64,000 nucleotides of DNA, from positions 186,001 through 250,000 of the forward strand of contig NZ_JACJST010000005.1 in NCBI RefSeq assembly GCF_014698305.1, read 5' to 3'. The notes under the pieces were generated by a model that saw nothing but the letters and a program-made list of their open reading frames with translations, was not told the origin of the DNA and did not search any database. Position 1 is the first letter of the stretch, and each line of letters starts with the position of its first letter. Below are positions 43,051-50,146 of this stretch, piece by piece. Position numbers and translations under genes: made by a program. This stretch comes from Anabaena lutea FACHB-196. Its GTDB lineage: Bacteria; Cyanobacteriota; Cyanobacteriia; Cyanobacteriales; Nostocaceae.

Positions 43051-43611
43051 TTATCTAAATAATCCTATTGATTGCAAACTGCTAACTAACTCAGCAATAC
43101 CTTGTGCAGCTAGTCCAACACCAACAGCTAAAGCAGATGCAATTTCAATAATTTTTAGCAACCCACTTGACTTATATTTTGCATCATCTAAATCATCTTT
43201 TTGATTTTTAATTTCAATAACTATATGATTATCTTTGTGATTTAGAGAATCAACTAAATTCTCCATTTTTTTAATATGTTGCTCTTGTGTAGAGATACGT
43301 TTTTTGAGATTTTCTAACTTACTATCTATCTGAGTTTTGACTTCACCAATTTTTTCTTTACACTCCTCTACATTAGTTTCACGAGTTTGAATTGCTGCTT
43401 CTACACTAGCAATTAAGTTATTATCTGAATTTGCATAAACTCCTTTACTACTTTTCAGCATCTTCAGTTTTTCCTGAAGACTTTCCATATCTTCCTGATA
43501 CTCTTTTTGTGATTCTCCCAAGGTTTCAATTTGTTGACTATTATCTTTAATTTCACTTTCTAAATCTTGGCGATCATTATATTCCATTTGTGACATAATT
43601 CTTAATATCAA
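43051..43611 (-). CDS. Coiled-coil protein with C-terminal hydrophobic segment
   Basis: 186 residues. Residues ~10-145 are a nearly continuous heptad-rich coiled coil rich in E, K, Q and L (LESEIKDNSQQIETLGESQK, EYQEDMESLQEKLKMLKSSK, KKRISTQEQHIKKMENLVDS), followed by a hydrophobic, Gly/Ala-rich C-terminal segment (IASALAVGVGLAAQGIAELV) that could insert in a membrane. Function unknown. Its start follows directly after the stop of the 125-residue gene (43611/43612), so the two are almost certainly co-translated. Last gene of the HerA-type cluster. Confidence 0.7.
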   Translation of the reverse strand: MILRIMSQMEYNDRQDLESEIKDNSQQIETLGESQKEYQEDMESLQEKLKMLKSSKGVYANSDNNLIASVEAAIQTRETNVEECKEKIGEVKTQIDSKLENLKKRISTQEQHIKKMENLVDSLNHKDNHIVIEIKNQKDDLDDAKYKSSGLLKIIEIASALAVGVGLAAQGIAELVSSLQSIGLFR

Positions 43612-43989
43612 TTATTTCTTAATTTCCCTAAACATATCTTGCAAATCCATTAAATCTATGCTATTCAGAAAATCTATCATTACTTGGCAATCATGAGCAA
43701 TATTTCTCAATTCTTCCGCTTCAGTATTAGTGGTAAAATGTAATTGTGCTTTAGCAAGTAACTGTGATAATTCCTGAAATTTAGATATTATTATCTGCTG
43801 TTCTTGCTGCATTGAAACAACAGTTTTTAATGGTGAACTTCCAGATTTTTCTAATTCAGAAATCCAGCCAGGAGTAAAAATTAGTTCTTCATATATTTTT
43901 AACAATTGTAAATAAGCATGATTGAACCTTATAGCCTGATTTGCTAAAGTTTCGTAAGATAAAACTAGATTTTTAACTGCTATATCCAA
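43612..43989 (-). CDS. Small helical protein, unknown function
   Basis: 125 residues, helical by composition with no membrane segment (MDIAVKNLVLSYETLANQAI, then QEQQIIISKFQELSQLLAKA). Unrecognised. It sits between the ATPase gene (133 bp upstream, containing a MITE-like element) and the coiled-coil gene (0 bp downstream). Could be an adaptor of the cluster; this is positional inference only. Confidence 0.65.
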   Translation of the reverse strand: MDIAVKNLVLSYETLANQAIRFNHAYLQLLKIYEELIFTPGWISELEKSGSSPLKTVVSMQQEQQIIISKFQELSQLLAKAQLHFTTNTEAEELRNIAHDCQVMIDFLNSIDLMDLQDMFREIKK

Positions 43990-44021
43990 AATGATTTTCT
44001 CCTATTTATAAATTTCATAAA

Positions 44022-44109
44022 TTGTAGGTTGGGTAGAGCGATAGCGAAACCCAACATTGTATAAAACTTCTTGAAACGTTGGGTTTCCTTACGTCAACCC
44101 AACCTACAA
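44022..44109. mobile_element. MITE-like element with GTAGGTTGGGT ends (copy 2)
   Basis: 88 bp with perfect 13-bp terminal inverted repeats (TTGTAGGTTGGGT and ACCCAACCTACAA) and a nested inner pair (CGAAACCCAAC / GTTGGGTTTCC). Same family as 7969-8059. Sits between two genes of the HerA-type cluster. Confidence 0.8.
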
Positions 44110-44122
44110 ATGTACTATTTTC

Positions 44123-47100
44123 TCATATTTGTAAATCACGTTTAACCTTATTAATTTTTGCTTGCTGAATAGCTAAACTCAATACTTCCGTTAACTTATC
44201 TTGTAATTCTCGTTTCTCATTTTGCAAACGCTTTAGAATCTCTTTTAAAGAGAAATCTTCAACATCAGTAATACGTCTTTGTTCATAATCAAGATTGTCT
44301 TTTAGTTTTTGAATATCTGCAACCTGTGATTCTCTACCTAAAATCTGGGCTAAATTTATAATCTGTTGCTGAATAGTTTGCATCTGACGAGATGTTTTTT
44401 GCCAAAGTTGTTTATAATGACTGCGACGAATTTTATTATTCTTATCCAATACTTCTTGATAAGATTTGTCAAATATATCCAACCTTTGATTTACCAAAGA
44501 TTCTAAGTCTACCAAATCTGTTAAAGTTAAATCAGCAGCAAGTTGTAAATATTTAAAACTGCGAATATTATTCGCATCAATTCTTCTATCTATTTGCAGT
44601 GATAACTCATCGGGAACAGGGTTTAAATCAAAACGTAACTCTCCAGCTAACCGATGAAAGATTTCCTGTTTTAAATTTGATAATAAGAGTTGTAATTCTG
44701 TGCAACCTTGGGAAACTTCCTGCAATTCTTCCCGAATATCAGTTAAACTTTGATTGTATTCTTTGTACAATCTTTGATATTCTTGTAAAGCAGTGCTGAG
44801 TAAAGTTTCCTGACCTTTAATATACCAAGTGCGAGATTTTATAAAATTCCTAATTTTATCATTTGTAATTGAACTTTCTACCCCTAACTTCTCCTTAGCA
44901 CTATTTTCATAAGGAATTTTCACCGGGTGGGGACGATACCAACCTTCCATATATAAAAAAGATTCACCAGGTTGTAACCGTGCAATTTCTTCCATTTGTG
45001 ATTGGTCTAAAAGCATCGCTTGGCCAATATCTTTTCTATCATCTGCTGACACCAAACGATGAGCAATTTTCACATTTGTAGTTTTGACAACTTCTGCTGC
45101 TACTCCTGTGGGTAACTGGTCAGCAATAATAATTGCTTCTCTTAATGCTCGCATTTCTGCTAACATTCTTGTGACATAATTTGCAGCTTCTTGTTTTGTA
45201 TTTGCATCTTCACCAGAAGAAGTACCTAAATTTCTCCCTACTAAGTTATGCGCTTCTTCTAATAATATAATATGTTCAGGATTTCCGGCTTTTTCTGTAC
45301 GTTGACGCTTGATATATTCGCGGATTTTTGTTAGCAAAAAGAACGTCATTAAGTTTGCTTGGTCTTGGTTTAAATAGTCTAATTCTAAAATTGTGGGATA
45401 TTGCAATAAATCAGCAATTGTGGGACTACTACGTTGAGTATTCAACATTGCACCCACACCGCGTTTTAACAAACTCCCAATTCTCACTTCTAAAGCAGTT
45501 TTCAGGTTAGATTTTACCTCACCTGCGTAATCTTTAGTTTCAAATAAAGCGGTGATTTTATCATATAAATCCCGCATGGTAGGAATTGGTAAATTTTCTG
45601 GTGTTCCCTCTTCGCTTCCCGTCCATTCCCGGTGATAATATATTTCTTCCAATGCTTCGGAAAGCAAAGCGGGTAAGGGACCAGAAAGGGGTAACGCACC
45701 CCGAAATGAAGCTTCTAAATTAGAAATGTGTTCATAAAAAGGAACTCCTGCGGAAACTTCAAAGGGATTAAAACGGAAAGGGGAAATTAAATCATTTCCT
45801 AAAGTGTAAACTCTTAATTCTTGGGTGAGAATTTTTAAAGATTTGAGAAATTCTAAATCAGCGCGAGTAAATTTACTCAGATTAGGATTAATAGCCAAAA
45901 GTGAACGATATTCAGTTTTTGCAGGTTCAAATACTAAAAATGGGATTCCATGACTCCACAACTGAGTTAGTAAATTAAAAGCTGTGGTTGTTTTTCCACT
46001 TCCGGGAACACCACAAATAAAAGCGTGTTTATTCAGTTGTTTTAATTCAATTTGAATTTTGTTTTCTTCACCTCGGTTAATTTCATAACCACCAAAATCA
46101 ATCCATTGTTTATCTTTATCTAAACTGGTAATATCATTTTCTTGACTAATTCCCGCTACAGGTGCATCACTGGGTACAACTATACGAAATAAACCACTAA
46201 TTTCATTTAATGTTGCGTAGCGGTGTAAAGGTTTTAAATCTAAGACGCGCACACTACCTTTACCTGTGATTGAATCACCTCCAAATTCTGCTTCTCCCAG
46301 TCCTTTATCCCATTCTTCCCAATGGGTAGCGGTGGAAAGTTTTCCTGATTGGGTAGCTGCAAGACTGTCTGTAAATGTGGGATGATTGGGAGTGAGAATA
46401 ATAGTCCGGTAGCGGCTTTTTTTCGTTCCACTTAGTAATAATGTTCCTAAAACGCTGCGAACTGCTAACTCATTTTTTCCCAAAACTTTGAAGCTATAAC
46501 GAAATAAACTTTCTGTTAAGTAAGAAAATTGATATTTTTCGTAAATACGAGAAACTAATTGCGCGTTTCTGTCTCCTTCTTTAGCAGAACTCAAACTAGA
46601 ACTGCTACTCGCTTGTCGCAGTTGGGATAACATTTGATCTAACGCATTTATCCAACTAGATTTCTCTTGTAATGTGGTGGTATCTGGTTGCAAAGTTATT
46701 TCTAATATCATGGAACTATTGAAACGAGAAATAACTTGACAAACTACTAACATATCGTTAGCTTCATCTGCTTCTAATTGCAATGGTACATAATAATTTG
46801 GTAGTCCTTTTGTATTTAGTGATGCTAAAGAATCTTTGGGACGAGTGCTGATAATTTCTTCGTGTTTTATTGCTTCACCAATACAGTCTACCCAATTGAG
46901 ATTTTGAAGTTGGGGAACTTCTGTTTGTAATTCAATTTTATAAAATTGGTTGAGAAATCCATCTGTGATAATTTTTTTAATATCTTCAGCTATTTGAGTT
47001 TCAGTATCTGGTGAAATAGGTTGTGATTGACTGACGACTAAATAAATACCCAGTCTTTTATCGAAGGGTAAACCGGGTGTGTAGCGATAGCGTATGGAAA

Positions 47101-47257
47101 AGGTGAGGTTATAAACTCTACCTATATCGCTGAGAAGGAGTAAGAAGTCTTTTTGACTGCTGAGAACTTTTTGACGTACTTCTTGTCCGTATTGGGAGGT
47201 GTATTTTTGGGATTTTAGATCGGGGAGTTGGGGTATTTGGAAGATTAGGGGGAACAT
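44123..47257 (-). CDS. HerA/VirB4-like P-loop ATPase with coiled-coil tail
   Basis: 1044 residues. The N-terminal ~390 residues are unrecognised alpha/beta sequence. Next a RecA-type HerA/FtsK-like ATPase: Walker A GVPGSGKT (416-423), FLVFEPAKTEYR, Walker B EHIILLEEAH (661-670), DQLPTGVAAEVVKTTNVKIA (713-732, sensor and Arg-finger-type region). From ~815 to the end it is long coiled coil. HerA-type ATPases pump or translocate DNA or protein and often partner with nucleases in DNA repair or phage defence; here no nuclease is recognisable. Starts 10 bp after the upstream 564-residue gene, so they share an operon. A weak match to secretion-type VirB4 ATPases is an alternative. Confidence 0.85.
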   Translation of the reverse strand: MFPLIFQIPQLPDLKSQKYTSQYGQEVRQKVLSSQKDFLLLLSDIGRVYNLTFSIRYRYTPGLPFDKRLGIYLVVSQSQPISPDTETQIAEDIKKIITDGFLNQFYKIELQTEVPQLQNLNWVDCIGEAIKHEEIISTRPKDSLASLNTKGLPNYYVPLQLEADEANDMLVVCQVISRFNSSMILEITLQPDTTTLQEKSSWINALDQMLSQLRQASSSSSLSSAKEGDRNAQLVSRIYEKYQFSYLTESLFRYSFKVLGKNELAVRSVLGTLLLSGTKKSRYRTIILTPNHPTFTDSLAATQSGKLSTATHWEEWDKGLGEAEFGGDSITGKGSVRVLDLKPLHRYATLNEISGLFRIVVPSDAPVAGISQENDITSLDKDKQWIDFGGYEINRGEENKIQIELKQLNKHAFICGVPGSGKTTTAFNLLTQLWSHGIPFLVFEPAKTEYRSLLAINPNLSKFTRADLEFLKSLKILTQELRVYTLGNDLISPFRFNPFEVSAGVPFYEHISNLEASFRGALPLSGPLPALLSEALEEIYYHREWTGSEEGTPENLPIPTMRDLYDKITALFETKDYAGEVKSNLKTALEVRIGSLLKRGVGAMLNTQRSSPTIADLLQYPTILELDYLNQDQANLMTFFLLTKIREYIKRQRTEKAGNPEHIILLEEAHNLVGRNLGTSSGEDANTKQEAANYVTRMLAEMRALREAIIIADQLPTGVAAEVVKTTNVKIAHRLVSADDRKDIGQAMLLDQSQMEEIARLQPGESFLYMEGWYRPHPVKIPYENSAKEKLGVESSITNDKIRNFIKSRTWYIKGQETLLSTALQEYQRLYKEYNQSLTDIREELQEVSQGCTELQLLLSNLKQEIFHRLAGELRFDLNPVPDELSLQIDRRIDANNIRSFKYLQLAADLTLTDLVDLESLVNQRLDIFDKSYQEVLDKNNKIRRSHYKQLWQKTSRQMQTIQQQIINLAQILGRESQVADIQKLKDNLDYEQRRITDVEDFSLKEILKRLQNEKRELQDKLTEVLSLAIQQAKINKVKRDLQI

Positions 47258-47267
47258 GGTTGAATAA

Positions 47268-48962
47268 TTAAATTGATAATAGATTTAATATCTTTTGTTT
47301 TTCATCATTAAGTCTATGTTGTTCACTAGATTTTTTACTAATAGTTTCTCGTCGGCTTTTTTGAGAACCTTCAAAGAATTCTCCACATATTTGAATAGCT
47401 ACAAATTCAAATATAACACCAAGTATAATTGAACCAATAATAATCCCTCCCCAGTGCATCATAATATGAATTAAAAAAGCCATAATAAATGAAGCAAAGG
47501 GAGATATTTTTAGTAGTAAATTAATTTGTTCAAGATTTGCTTGTTCATTGTCAATCTTTTTATCTAGAGGAGCTAATTTATCTTGTATGTAACCTTTATA
47601 AAATTTGTTTACTTCGTATTTTGATCGTGATAATTCATCATGCAAATACTGTAAATAATTATCTAAAATTAAATCATATTGGTCATTTTCTTCTATGTTT
47701 ATATAGGGAATAGTATTAAAAGTATTATTTACAATTATTTTTGTATACACCAAAAAATTGGTAGATTGGATTTGTTCTAGTTGTTTATCAAGGTTAGATT
47801 TTAAATCTAGTGTTGCTTTGTATCTGTTTTCACATAATTCCTTCTTTGTATTTATTTCATTTCTGAGGTTATTTAAAAAAAGCTGGCAATCATTCTTTAC
47901 TTTATTCCTATGTAATGTTGGCAACATAGTTACTAAGTTATTTGCCATATCTTTCAACTTTTTGTATAAATTAGATGTATAGTAAGATGTAGAACGCTTA
48001 TTTGAATTAAATTCTTCTTGGATTAAAGATATAGCTGTTAATAAATCTGGCTGATAATATTGATTAAAGTTACTTAGCAATGAACCATCTATTTTCGATA
48101 AATTATCAGCAGCAATTTTTCTAGTGTTAGAATTATTACTCTGTAAACAATGAACTTGAGTTTCAACCAATATAGCAATATTCTCTTTACTGACACTGGG
48201 ATTTATTATTTGACTATATGCTTCTTGACAAGCAACTAATTCAAATAATTCATTTTCATCTACTTCTGATGCAGAACTTCCCATATTTTCTGCTCTTTGT
48301 AAAGCCTGATTAGTTTCTCTGATAGCTCGTAAAAATAAAGCATTAAATACTTTGATAATTATTGATTTAGAATTATCCACTATTGCTAAAAGTGCATGAA
48401 CACCCAAGCCTGTCTTTTTTATATCAGTAAAATTTTGACCTTGCGCTTTTATAGATGCTGTTTCTGATCTGAGCTTTTCTAAATCTCCATATATCCAAAA
48501 ATTTAAATAATCTCCAAAATCATTACTTGATAACAAATTTTTGTCTCCAATTCTTTTAATTTTACCCTGTACTATCTTTTCAGCAAGACTCTTAGGTTCT
48601 ACCGTTAAGTGTCGAGATACAGCAATAAAATCAAACTTCAGATTTTCAATAGTCGTCGCAGCAGACCAGCAAATTAAATCCGTTTTTCCTGACTGCGCTT
48701 GCTCACTTAGAATCGCCAACAAATCATCACTTTGCTTTAATCTTTCCCTAGTATCTGCATCTTTAATCTTGCCAAAAGCCTGAATAGTTAAAGCTACCAC
48801 TGCTTCTAACTTAATATTTTTCAATATCTCTACAAATGCCTCAACAGGTGGTGGATCACTTATCGCTAAAGCCTCAAATAAATCAATTTGTTCCCCTGCA
48901 TTTTGACATTCCCGGAAAGCGTTAATGATTTCAGCAGCAGTTCTGAGGCTTGAGTAATCCAT
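47268..48962 (-). CDS. HEAT-like/coiled-coil protein with C-terminal membrane hairpin
   Basis: 564 residues. The N-terminal ~130 residues look like helical repeats (AFVEILKNIKLEAVVALTIQ, AFGKIKDADTRERLKQSDDL), followed by a long helical/coiled-coil middle (LFLNNLRNEINTKKELCENR, YKATLDLKSNLDKQLEQIQS) and two adjacent hydrophobic segments near residues 490-530 (FASFIMAFLIHIMMHWGGII, then IGSIILGVIFEFVAIQIC), then a basic tail. It is likely to be anchored in the inner membrane by a hairpin. Function unknown. First gene of the cluster, 10 bp before the ATPase. Confidence 0.75.
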   Translation of the reverse strand: MDYSSLRTAAEIINAFRECQNAGEQIDLFEALAISDPPPVEAFVEILKNIKLEAVVALTIQAFGKIKDADTRERLKQSDDLLAILSEQAQSGKTDLICWSAATTIENLKFDFIAVSRHLTVEPKSLAEKIVQGKIKRIGDKNLLSSNDFGDYLNFWIYGDLEKLRSETASIKAQGQNFTDIKKTGLGVHALLAIVDNSKSIIIKVFNALFLRAIRETNQALQRAENMGSSASEVDENELFELVACQEAYSQIINPSVSKENIAILVETQVHCLQSNNSNTRKIAADNLSKIDGSLLSNFNQYYQPDLLTAISLIQEEFNSNKRSTSYYTSNLYKKLKDMANNLVTMLPTLHRNKVKNDCQLFLNNLRNEINTKKELCENRYKATLDLKSNLDKQLEQIQSTNFLVYTKIIVNNTFNTIPYINIEENDQYDLILDNYLQYLHDELSRSKYEVNKFYKGYIQDKLAPLDKKIDNEQANLEQINLLLKISPFASFIMAFLIHIMMHWGGIIIGSIILGVIFEFVAIQICGEFFEGSQKSRRETISKKSSEQHRLNDEKQKILNLLSI

Positions 48963-49223
48963 ACTGTTGGTAGATGTGACAATTTATTTGTATATAAAAT
49001 ATCACATATCACCGCGTCATAATAAAGCGCTTATACTTAATTAACAATTGTTGAAAAATAATGAATGTCTCCAGATCCCAGACTGCTCAAATGAAGATCC
49101 AATTTGTAATTTACCAAAATTCCCAAACCTAGGCGATATTATATCCTATTTATGCATTTTCATTGAATCATGTGGTTTTAATATCTATAATAGATTTATC
49201 TTCGTTTCTAAAAGGATTTGACC

Positions 49224-49670
49224 ATGAAAATAGAAGAAAAATCAACACTCTATGAAACTGATTATCAAGAATGGATAGAAACTACATTACAGCATTTACG
49301 TAGGCAAAATTTTAATCACTTAGATTTAGAGCATCTCATTGAAGAAATTGAAGCAATGGGTAAAAGTGATAAACGAGAATTACAAAATAGACTAATAATT
49401 TTACTAATGCACTTATTAAAATGGAAATATCAACCAGAAAATCAATCTAATAGTTGGTTATCTACCATTGATGAACAACGTCGTCAAATTTCATTTATTT
49501 TTGAAGATAGTCCTAGCTTAGAAAAAAATTATCTAACTACGGTATTTGATAAATGTTATCAAATGGCTCGAAAATCAGCTAGTAAAGAAACTAAATTACC
49601 TATTAGCGAATTTCCTGAAAACTGCCCTTTTGCTCAAAGTGAAATTTTCGATTTTGATTTTTATCCCTAA
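49224..49670 (+). CDS. DUF29 family protein (copy 1)
   Basis: About 148 residues of the cyanobacterial DUF29 family: LYETDYQEWIETTLQHLR, LEHLIEEIEAMGKSDKRELQ, HLLKWKYQPE, ENCPFAQSEIF. ATG 49224 follows AAAGGA; TTG 49218 is an alternative. Helical, soluble, function unknown; often in tandem copies. A paralogue follows after 26 bp. Confidence 0.9.
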   Translation: MKIEEKSTLYETDYQEWIETTLQHLRRQNFNHLDLEHLIEEIEAMGKSDKRELQNRLIILLMHLLKWKYQPENQSNSWLSTIDEQRRQISFIFEDSPSLEKNYLTTVFDKCYQMARKSASKETKLPISEFPENCPFAQSEIFDFDFYP

Positions 49671-49696
49671 TCTTTATTTATAGGAGTTTTGACACC

Positions 49697-50146
49697 ATGA
49701 TAACTGTAAAGACTTTGTACGAAACTGACTTTAATCTCTGGTTAGAAGAAACTGCAATTCTCCTGAAAAAAGGAGAACTAGACCAATTAGATATCGAAAA
49801 TTTACTTGAAGAAATTGAAGGGATGAGTCGCAAAGAAAAAGATGCTTTAGAAAGTAATCTAATTCGGGTAATTCAACATTTACTTAAGTGGCATTATCAA
49901 CCACAAAAACGCTCTCCCAGTTGGTCTTATACCATTATTGAACACTCTCGCAGACTAAATAAAGCTTTTAAAAATAGTCCTAGTCTGAAGCCTTACTTCG
50001 ATGCTGTATTTAATGAATGTTATAATGAAGCTTGTAAAGCTGCTGCTGTTGAAACTCAACTTCCTTTAACTACTTTTCCTGAATCATGTCCCTTTACCAA
50101 GTCTGATATTTTGGATGTTAATGTTGATGATTATTTGATTAACTAA
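49697..50146 (+). CDS. DUF29 family protein (copy 2)
   Basis: 149 residues, paralogue of the preceding gene (LYETDFNLWLEETAILLKKG, IENLLEEIEGMSRKEKDALE, HLLKWHYQPQ, PESCPFTKSDI). Tandem duplication is evident from matching length and motif order, although sequence has diverged. Function unknown. Confidence 0.9.
   Translation: MITVKTLYETDFNLWLEETAILLKKGELDQLDIENLLEEIEGMSRKEKDALESNLIRVIQHLLKWHYQPQKRSPSWSYTIIEHSRRLNKAFKNSPSLKPYFDAVFNECYNEACKAAAVETQLPLTTFPESCPFTKSDILDVNVDDYLIN

What the first reader, a model, noticed from the sequence alone, without database searches (positions are those of the whole stretch)
43051..48962. Uncharacterised four-gene cluster around a HerA/VirB4-like ATPase with membrane-linked coiled-coil partners
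Seen: four minus-strand genes (HEAT-like protein with membrane hairpin, HerA-type ATPase with Walker A/B and a ~230-residue coiled-coil tail, a 125-residue helical protein, a coiled-coil protein with hydrophobic C-terminus) with gaps of 10, 133 and 0 bp. Known: HerA-type ATPases usually work with nucleases in repair or antiphage systems. Inference: this set has no recognisable nuclease and two membrane-linked coiled-coil partners, so it may be a membrane-associated translocation or defence machine.
Basis: partly seen in the sequence, partly recalled or inferred. Interest (0 to 1): 0.7.

Follow-up and report, generated by a model that had tools for sequence, protein, structure and literature searches.

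The report
HerA-ATPase cluster related to toxin operons
A four-gene cyanobacterial cluster built around a pumping ATPase belongs to a little-described family of operons whose relatives carry exchangeable toxins, which suggests a membrane-tethered weapon or defence device rather than a DNA-repair machine.

Summary
In detail: genes A (membrane hairpin), B (HerA-type ATPase), C and D (coiled coil) lie where stated. The set is real and sparse: C is found in 6 and D in 8 of 291 order genomes, and seven relatives with B about 50-94% identical all keep C and D just downstream; in one, a dynamin stands in A's place. Its meaning comes from relatives. The same ATPase core on plasmids is followed by a colicin/HNH-type or ADP-ribosyltransferase toxin in 5 of 18 neighbourhoods opened. 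In 16 cyanobacterial loci B's N-terminal domain is fused to an FtsK ATPase instead and is followed, 16 of 16, by a ~72-aa helical protein and a protein with a paralogous N-terminus and one of six unrelated C-termini, one a deaminase followed by Imm1 immunity. One of the two loci in B's sister clade carries such a C-terminus. Best reading: a membrane-tethered, ATPase-driven effector system, related to polymorphic-toxin operons and working like a small type VII system, with C and D in the partner and effector slots. Against it: C and D show no toxin domain, no homology to the sister's helical proteins, and no immunity gene. Export itself is not shown.

The parts
47268..48962 (-). gene A, 564 aa: helical-repeat (HEAT-like) N-terminus, long helices, membrane hairpin
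   Evidence: model mean pLDDT 54.7; residues 1-110 mostly 68-83
48468..48962 (-). A residues 1-165: module also found at the N-terminus of other cyanobacterial proteins, one with WD40 repeats
47370..47525 (-). A residues 480-531: hydrophobic hairpin
   Evidence: kept in 5 of 5 A proteins tested
44123..47257 (-). gene B, 1044 aa: HerA/FtsK-superfamily ATPase
46163..47164 (-). B residues 32-365: N-terminal domain shared with FtsK-type proteins of the sister operons
   Evidence: hhalign 99.9%, E 6e-33, 36% identity over 305 columns
44903..46105 (-). B residues 385-785: ATPase core used for profile A5 and the tree
45989..46012 (-). Walker A, GVPGSGKT
   Evidence: G416, G419, G421, K422 invariant in 19 of 19 sequences
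45245..45265 (-). Walker-B region, LLEEAHN
   Evidence: E667, E668, A669, H670 invariant in 19 of 19
44126..44830 (-). B residues 810-1044: helical tail, not conserved outside the near clade
   Evidence: model mean pLDDT 45.9 overall, 62-85 over most of the tail
43612..43989 (-). gene C, 125 aa, all-helical by sequence; TTG start
43051..43611 (-). gene D, 186 aa (181 from the ATG at 43596): coiled coil with hydrophobic, glycine-containing C-terminus
43087..43167 (-). D residues 149-175: most hydrophobic stretch

Best explanation
The cluster is a conflict (toxin or defence) operon of the same broad family as polymorphic-toxin operons. Proposed working: A sits in the membrane by its hairpin and holds B through its helical-repeat part (inferred); B binds A and the substrate through its N-terminal domain and tail and, as a ring ATPase, drives a protein partner through or into the membrane (inferred from the superfamily and the gene neighbours of relatives); C is the small helical partner or chaperone and D the effector, whose coiled coil is the carrier part and whose hydrophobic end acts on a membrane (inferred from position only). 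Shown: conserved gene set; homology of B's N-terminal domain to that of FtsK-type proteins which precede true polymorphic toxins; toxins and immunity genes after the same ATPase core elsewhere. Not shown: export, the target, any activity of C or D.
For: (1) C and D follow B in all seven near relatives (L009, L010, L011, L012, L013, L067, L069; in L069 one gene lies between B and C, in L009 a HicA/UPF0150 pair) and A is present in four of them (L010, L013, L067, L069), replaced by a Dynamin_N protein in L012 (60.9 v 27 bits), nearly deleted in L011 and beyond the contig end in L009. (2) B's N-terminal domain is homologous to that of FtsK_SpoIIIE-type proteins (PF01580 over cut-off in 4 of 4 scanned) found in 16 of 291 order genomes; an A-profile match lies just upstream in 9 of the 16. 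(3) In 16 of 16 such loci the ATPase is followed by a 71-78-aa protein and then by a protein with a paralogous N-terminus and one of six C-terminal clusters; one is a MafB19 deaminase (36.9 v 27 bits) followed by Imm1 (52.3 v 22.4); further toxin domains CdiA_C and EndoU come next in two loci. (4) B's sister clade (L078, L079; fork 100/99) has coiled-coil proteins after the ATPase, and in L078 the second one carries a C-terminal domain 40% identical (E 5e-40) to that of the FtsK-type locus L117. (5) The same ATPase core on plasmids is followed by WHH/colicin-DNase, LHH or ADP-ribosyltransferase toxins in 5 of 18 regions opened (13 had the next gene scanned): L023, L025, L028, L030, L032, with SMI1/KNR4 next in three and DUF6985 in one. 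(6) D matches the coiled-coil protein that follows the ATPase in L083-L085 and L014 (hhalign 92.5%, reversed-sequence controls 4.5-16.7%, eight shuffles 0.0-0.1%). (7) Patchy, decaying distribution: L011 and L065 are remnants.
Against: No toxin domain is recognised in C or D. C and D are not homologous to the sister operons' helical proteins (0.1% and 3.4%; 0.05% and 2.0%). D's end is of one kind in all nine homologues, so it is not polymorphic, and no gene after D is shared among the near relatives, so there is no immunity candidate other than C (by inspection). Toxins were recognised over cut-off after the ATPase in only 1 of 20 other cyanobacterial HerA-type loci (L015, third gene), though few of their neighbours were scanned. 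In L079, the other sister locus, the shared C-terminal domain is absent. Export was tested nowhere. The relatives on plasmids often have WYL regulators, dynamins or, once, Csm6 nearby, which fits defence as well.
Confidence: 0.45

Rival explanations
1. An intracellular antiphage or abortive-infection device: B senses or pulls on invading DNA or a phage complex, and D (with A) damages the cell's own membrane. Toxins in the relatives are suicide effectors, not exported weapons.
For: HerA/FtsK domains are recurrent in anti-invader systems (passages of PMC10853773, and PMC12839542). PADLOC HerA and mad8 profiles match B. Dynamins and WYL regulators stand beside several relatives and Csm6 near one. 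Low GC and patchy distribution.
Against: In 16 sister loci the effector has a helical N-terminus paralogous to a free small protein, and Imm1/SMI1 immunity genes occur, the pattern of exported polymorphic toxins. No other gene of a known defence system was matched in the cluster.
Confidence: 0.3
2. A DNA-transfer or DNA-import motor related to CedD or VirB4, with A as membrane anchor.
For: Best NCBIfam match of B is CedD (E 1.7e-19). The Chlorogloea copy (L012) lies beside a DUF87 protein with sub-threshold conjugation-type matches.
Against: CedD score 69.9 against a cut-off of 600; toxin and immunity genes after the ATPase in relatives; no relaxase or pilus gene in the cluster.
Confidence: 0.1
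3. A cell-envelope or chromosome-organising house function peculiar to some cyanobacteria.
For: In the window genome and in L009 and L011 the cluster lies near the same M16 peptidase and fructosamine-kinase genes, so it has been inherited in place for some time.
Against: Absent from most genomes: B core in 18 of 291, C in 6, D in 8; decayed in L011 and L065.
Confidence: 0.08

Closest known systems
[quoted passage not shown] 2012, PMC3482391; passages seen)
   Same: Family context: effector genes with constant N-terminus and variable C-terminus, immunity genes, a pumping ATPase of the FtsK/HerA superfamily as trafficking part; met in the FtsK-type sister operons.
   Different: In the window no variable toxin and no immunity gene; ATPase is a single HerA-type domain with a separate membrane partner. 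The passages seen list T7SS ATPases with FtsK/HerA domains but not this gene set.
Type VII secretion (EssC with WXG100/LXG proteins)
   Same: Works-like only: FtsK/HerA ATPase followed by a small helical protein and a helical-N-terminus effector.
   Different: One ATPase domain, no membrane segment in B; the sister's small proteins give no WXG100 match and LXG only below cut-off in one of two scanned.
HerA/FtsK capture anti-invader systems (PMC10853773, PMC12839542; passages seen)
   Same: ATPase superfamily; exchange of HerA and FtsK domains on a constant partner is the pattern described there.
   Different: No endonuclease, no Orc/Cdc6 or HTH partner recognised here.
CedD / MADS mad8 / antiphage HerA
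   Same: Sequence similarity of the ATPase core.
   Different: Far below NCBIfam cut-offs; no partner genes of those systems.

Membership tests
FtsK-HerA superfamily ATPase | Walker A and acidic Walker B | tested here: met
   invariant in 19 of 19 aligned relatives
FtsK-HerA superfamily ATPase | glutamine as sensor 1 with an arginine just before that strand (definition from a passage of PMC10853773) | tested here: met
   R703 and Q714 invariant in 19 of 19; the assignment of roles is inference
Curated HerA (NCBIfam HerA_antiphage, HerA_Thermprot) | score over the curated cut-off | tested here: not met
   25.5 and 22.9 against 800; HerA_C has no match in the whole own genome
CedD | score over the curated cut-off | tested here: not met
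   69.9 against 600
MADS | mad8 together with other mad proteins | tested here: not met
   mad8 59.3 bits in B, no other mad profile in A, C or among the 25 shown for D; neighbours beyond the four genes not scanned
Polymorphic toxin system | constant N-terminus with exchangeable C-terminal toxin domains | tested here: not met
   window: D's C-terminus is of one kind in 9 of 9 homologues. FtsK-type sister operons: met, 16 loci, 6 C-terminal clusters
Polymorphic toxin system | adjacent immunity gene | tested here: inconclusive
   none recognised in the window cluster; Imm1 in L116, SMI1/KNR4 in L025, L030, annotated in L028
Polymorphic toxin system | toxin activity on other cells | not testable with these tools
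   needs experiment
Type VII secretion system | membrane-bound ATPase with several FtsK domains | tested here: not met
   B has one ATPase core and no segment over the hydropathy threshold
Type VII secretion system | WXG100 or LXG protein | tested here: not met
   C and D: no match. Sister small proteins: LXG 16.1 against 26.5 in one of two

The most novel reading that the evidence does not exclude
A previously unrecognised delivery class: one conserved N-terminal domain carried by interchangeable HerA-type or FtsK-type motors, plugged into interchangeable membrane partners (HEAT-hairpin protein, dynamin, other hairpin proteins) and loading interchangeable effectors. The window cluster is a version whose fixed effector is a membrane-active coiled-coil protein.
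Probability: 0.3. Interest if true: 0.8.

Novelty: new variant of a known kind. Interest (0 to 1): 0.58.

Why it matters
If right, a set of genes called hypothetical or DUF87 in many bacteria becomes a testable toxin-delivery or defence family, with cyanobacterial operons (FtsK-type, with obvious toxins and immunity genes) as the entry point. It would also give a natural experiment in which the motor domain was exchanged while its N-terminal domain and membrane partner were kept.

Tried and rejected
Structure prediction of B (mean pLDDT 45.9, pTM 0.30) and A (54.7, 0.28) was too poor for a fold search, so none was run. phmmer of B against solved structures gave only weak P-loop matches (best E 0.0029, adenylate kinase). 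A relation of A to the 300-aa hairpin protein upstream in L014 and L083-L085 was tested and not found (0.8%). C or D as homologues of the sister operons' helical proteins: not found. Viral contigs gave no relative of B; the phage collection gave two unannotated records, core only, not followed. Canonical HerA-NurA repair was rejected: scores far below cut-off. By-eye guesses not borne out by Pfam and so not counted: a lipase in L035 (no family), HNH in L016 (no family), RelA/SpoT in L036 (21.0 v 27), GIY-YIG in L112 (19.4 v 22.6), a metallopeptidase in L024 (23.4 v 25.6). The D to L083-L085 match rests on coiled coils; the reversed-sequence control lowers but does not remove that worry. E-values are for a set of 16 sequences.

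Paper searches made; none listed a paper that, by title and abstract start, describes this gene set. Only passages were read, of PMC3482391, PMC7159879, PMC12839542, PMC8195603 and PMC10853773. The library lacks most subscription journals and preprints, so novelty is provisional.
Full report
Observation. B carries Walker A and a Walker-B region and passes Pfam's DUF87 cut-off narrowly (24.4 v 23.2) and AAA (23.9 v 21.2); C, D and A pass none of Pfam's, and nothing passes NCBIfam's cut-offs. D's start is more likely at 43596. D's hydrophobic end is marked in the window but weak in most homologues.

Conservation of the set. A single-sequence search found B at E 1e-15 or better in 7 of 291 class genomes; a profile of the core found it in 18 of 291 order genomes, 19 loci. 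In the same 291 order genomes D was found in 8 (two of them fragments: G417 with two stops, G517 with 37 residues), C in 6 (G136 with a stop) and the A profile in 23, mostly its first 165 residues in other proteins. Near relatives of B (about 50-94% identity) are L009, L010, L011 (the same contig as L066), L012, L013, L067 and L069. All seven have C and D downstream. The order differs: L067 is B-C-D-A, and L069 is A-B-(MshEN plus A-type N-terminus)-C-D, with a stop inside A's match. In L012 a dynamin-like gene lies 27 bp before B. L011 has lost most of A and the start of B, and L065 keeps only an interrupted C and an intact D. In L009, as in L065, a HicA/UPF0150-type pair lies beside C (Pfam for L009; by eye for L065).

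Position in the family. In a tree of 46 cores the window's clade of eight rows is supported 100/99; L078 and L079 are its sister (fork 100/99); a group with L014 and L083-L085 is next (97/86); the plasmid proteins lie further off.

What follows the ATPase in relatives. Of 44 plasmid records with a match I opened 18, chosen to spread over organisms. In 13 of these the next gene was scanned with Pfam; 5 passed a toxin cut-off: L023 (WHH, colicin DNase), L028 and L030 (colicin DNase, WHH) and L032 (ADP-ribosyltransferase), and L025 (LHH). The gene after it is SMI1/KNR4-type in L025 and L030 and by annotation in L028, and DUF6985 in L023 (26.0 v 24.5). Among 20 other cyanobacterial HerA-type loci (L014-L019, L072-L085) only L015 showed a toxin over cut-off (Ntox46, third gene); only some of their neighbours were scanned. 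Upstream partners vary: dynamins, a Band_7 protein and a GTPase, hairpin proteins.

The FtsK-type sister operons. The A profile led to loci where an A-like gene precedes a protein of about 680 aa whose N-terminal part is that of B (hhalign 99.9%, 36% identity, residues 32-365) and whose C-terminal part is FtsK_SpoIIIE (over cut-off in 4 of 4 scanned). They occur in 16 of 291 order genomes and not in the window's own genome at E 1e-40. In all 16 loci (two of them nearly identical, L118 and L121) the next gene codes for 71-78 aa and the following one for 225-317 aa with a paralogous N-terminus; its C-terminal parts fall into six clusters without BLAST matches to each other at 1e-3. One is a MafB19-like deaminase, followed by Imm1. 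The next genes in L138 and L139 are CdiA_C and EndoU domains. This is the pattern of polymorphic toxins. The hydrophobic segment in A-like genes was seen in 8 of 10 tested.

The link between the two types. Besides B's N-terminal domain and A, an effector domain is shared: the second gene after the HerA-type ATPase in L078 has a C-terminus 40% identical over 190 residues to the effector of the FtsK-type locus L117, on a different N-terminus. L078 belongs to the sister clade of the window's B. The other sister locus, L079, has no such domain.

Mechanism. From this I take the cluster to be a membrane-tethered ATPase device for an effector, in which C and D occupy the places of partner and effector. 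A is the anchor, exchangeable with dynamin or other hairpin proteins. Whether the effector is exported (weapon) or released inside (defence) is not settled. I lean to export because of the type-VII-like arrangement and the immunity genes in the sister operons; PMC7159879 (passage) makes the same distinction, noting that constant parts in polymorphic toxin systems are trafficking parts. Against it stand the lack of any toxin domain or sequence relation to the sister's helical proteins in C and D and the uniform end of D.

Novelty. No described system matched in Pfam, NCBIfam or PADLOC, and ten paper searches listed none (numbers under Tried and rejected). Parts are of known kinds, hence new variant of a known kind.

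Noticed in passing
L112-L118, L121, L138-L145: FtsK-type cyanobacterial operons with a free ~72-aa helical protein and polymorphic effectors with paralogous N-termini; probably the better place to study this family.
   Followed up: partly
L013:4850-7267: A is fused at its C-terminus to an FKBP-type prolyl isomerase (128.1 bits).
   Followed up: no
L069:6863-7837: A protein in the operon joins an MshEN domain (33.5 v 23.1 bits) to an A-type N-terminus, which hints at a cyclic-di-GMP input (MshEN role recalled).
   Followed up: no
L096:1486-2940: A-type N-terminus fused to WD40 repeats: the module is shuffled among cyanobacterial proteins.
   Followed up: no
L009:3406-3885: HicA and UPF0150 genes on the opposite strand between B and C; a similar pair lies before C in the decayed locus L065.
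   Followed up: partly
L036:5299-10824: Streptomyces plasmid: ATPase, then a protein with a sub-threshold RelA/SpoT match, then two genes on an HD_4 hydrolase (76.7 v 27.2 bits); possibly an alarmone toxin with its hydrolase.
   Followed up: no
window 49218-50146: Two tandem DUF29 genes next to the cluster on the other strand.
   Followed up: no
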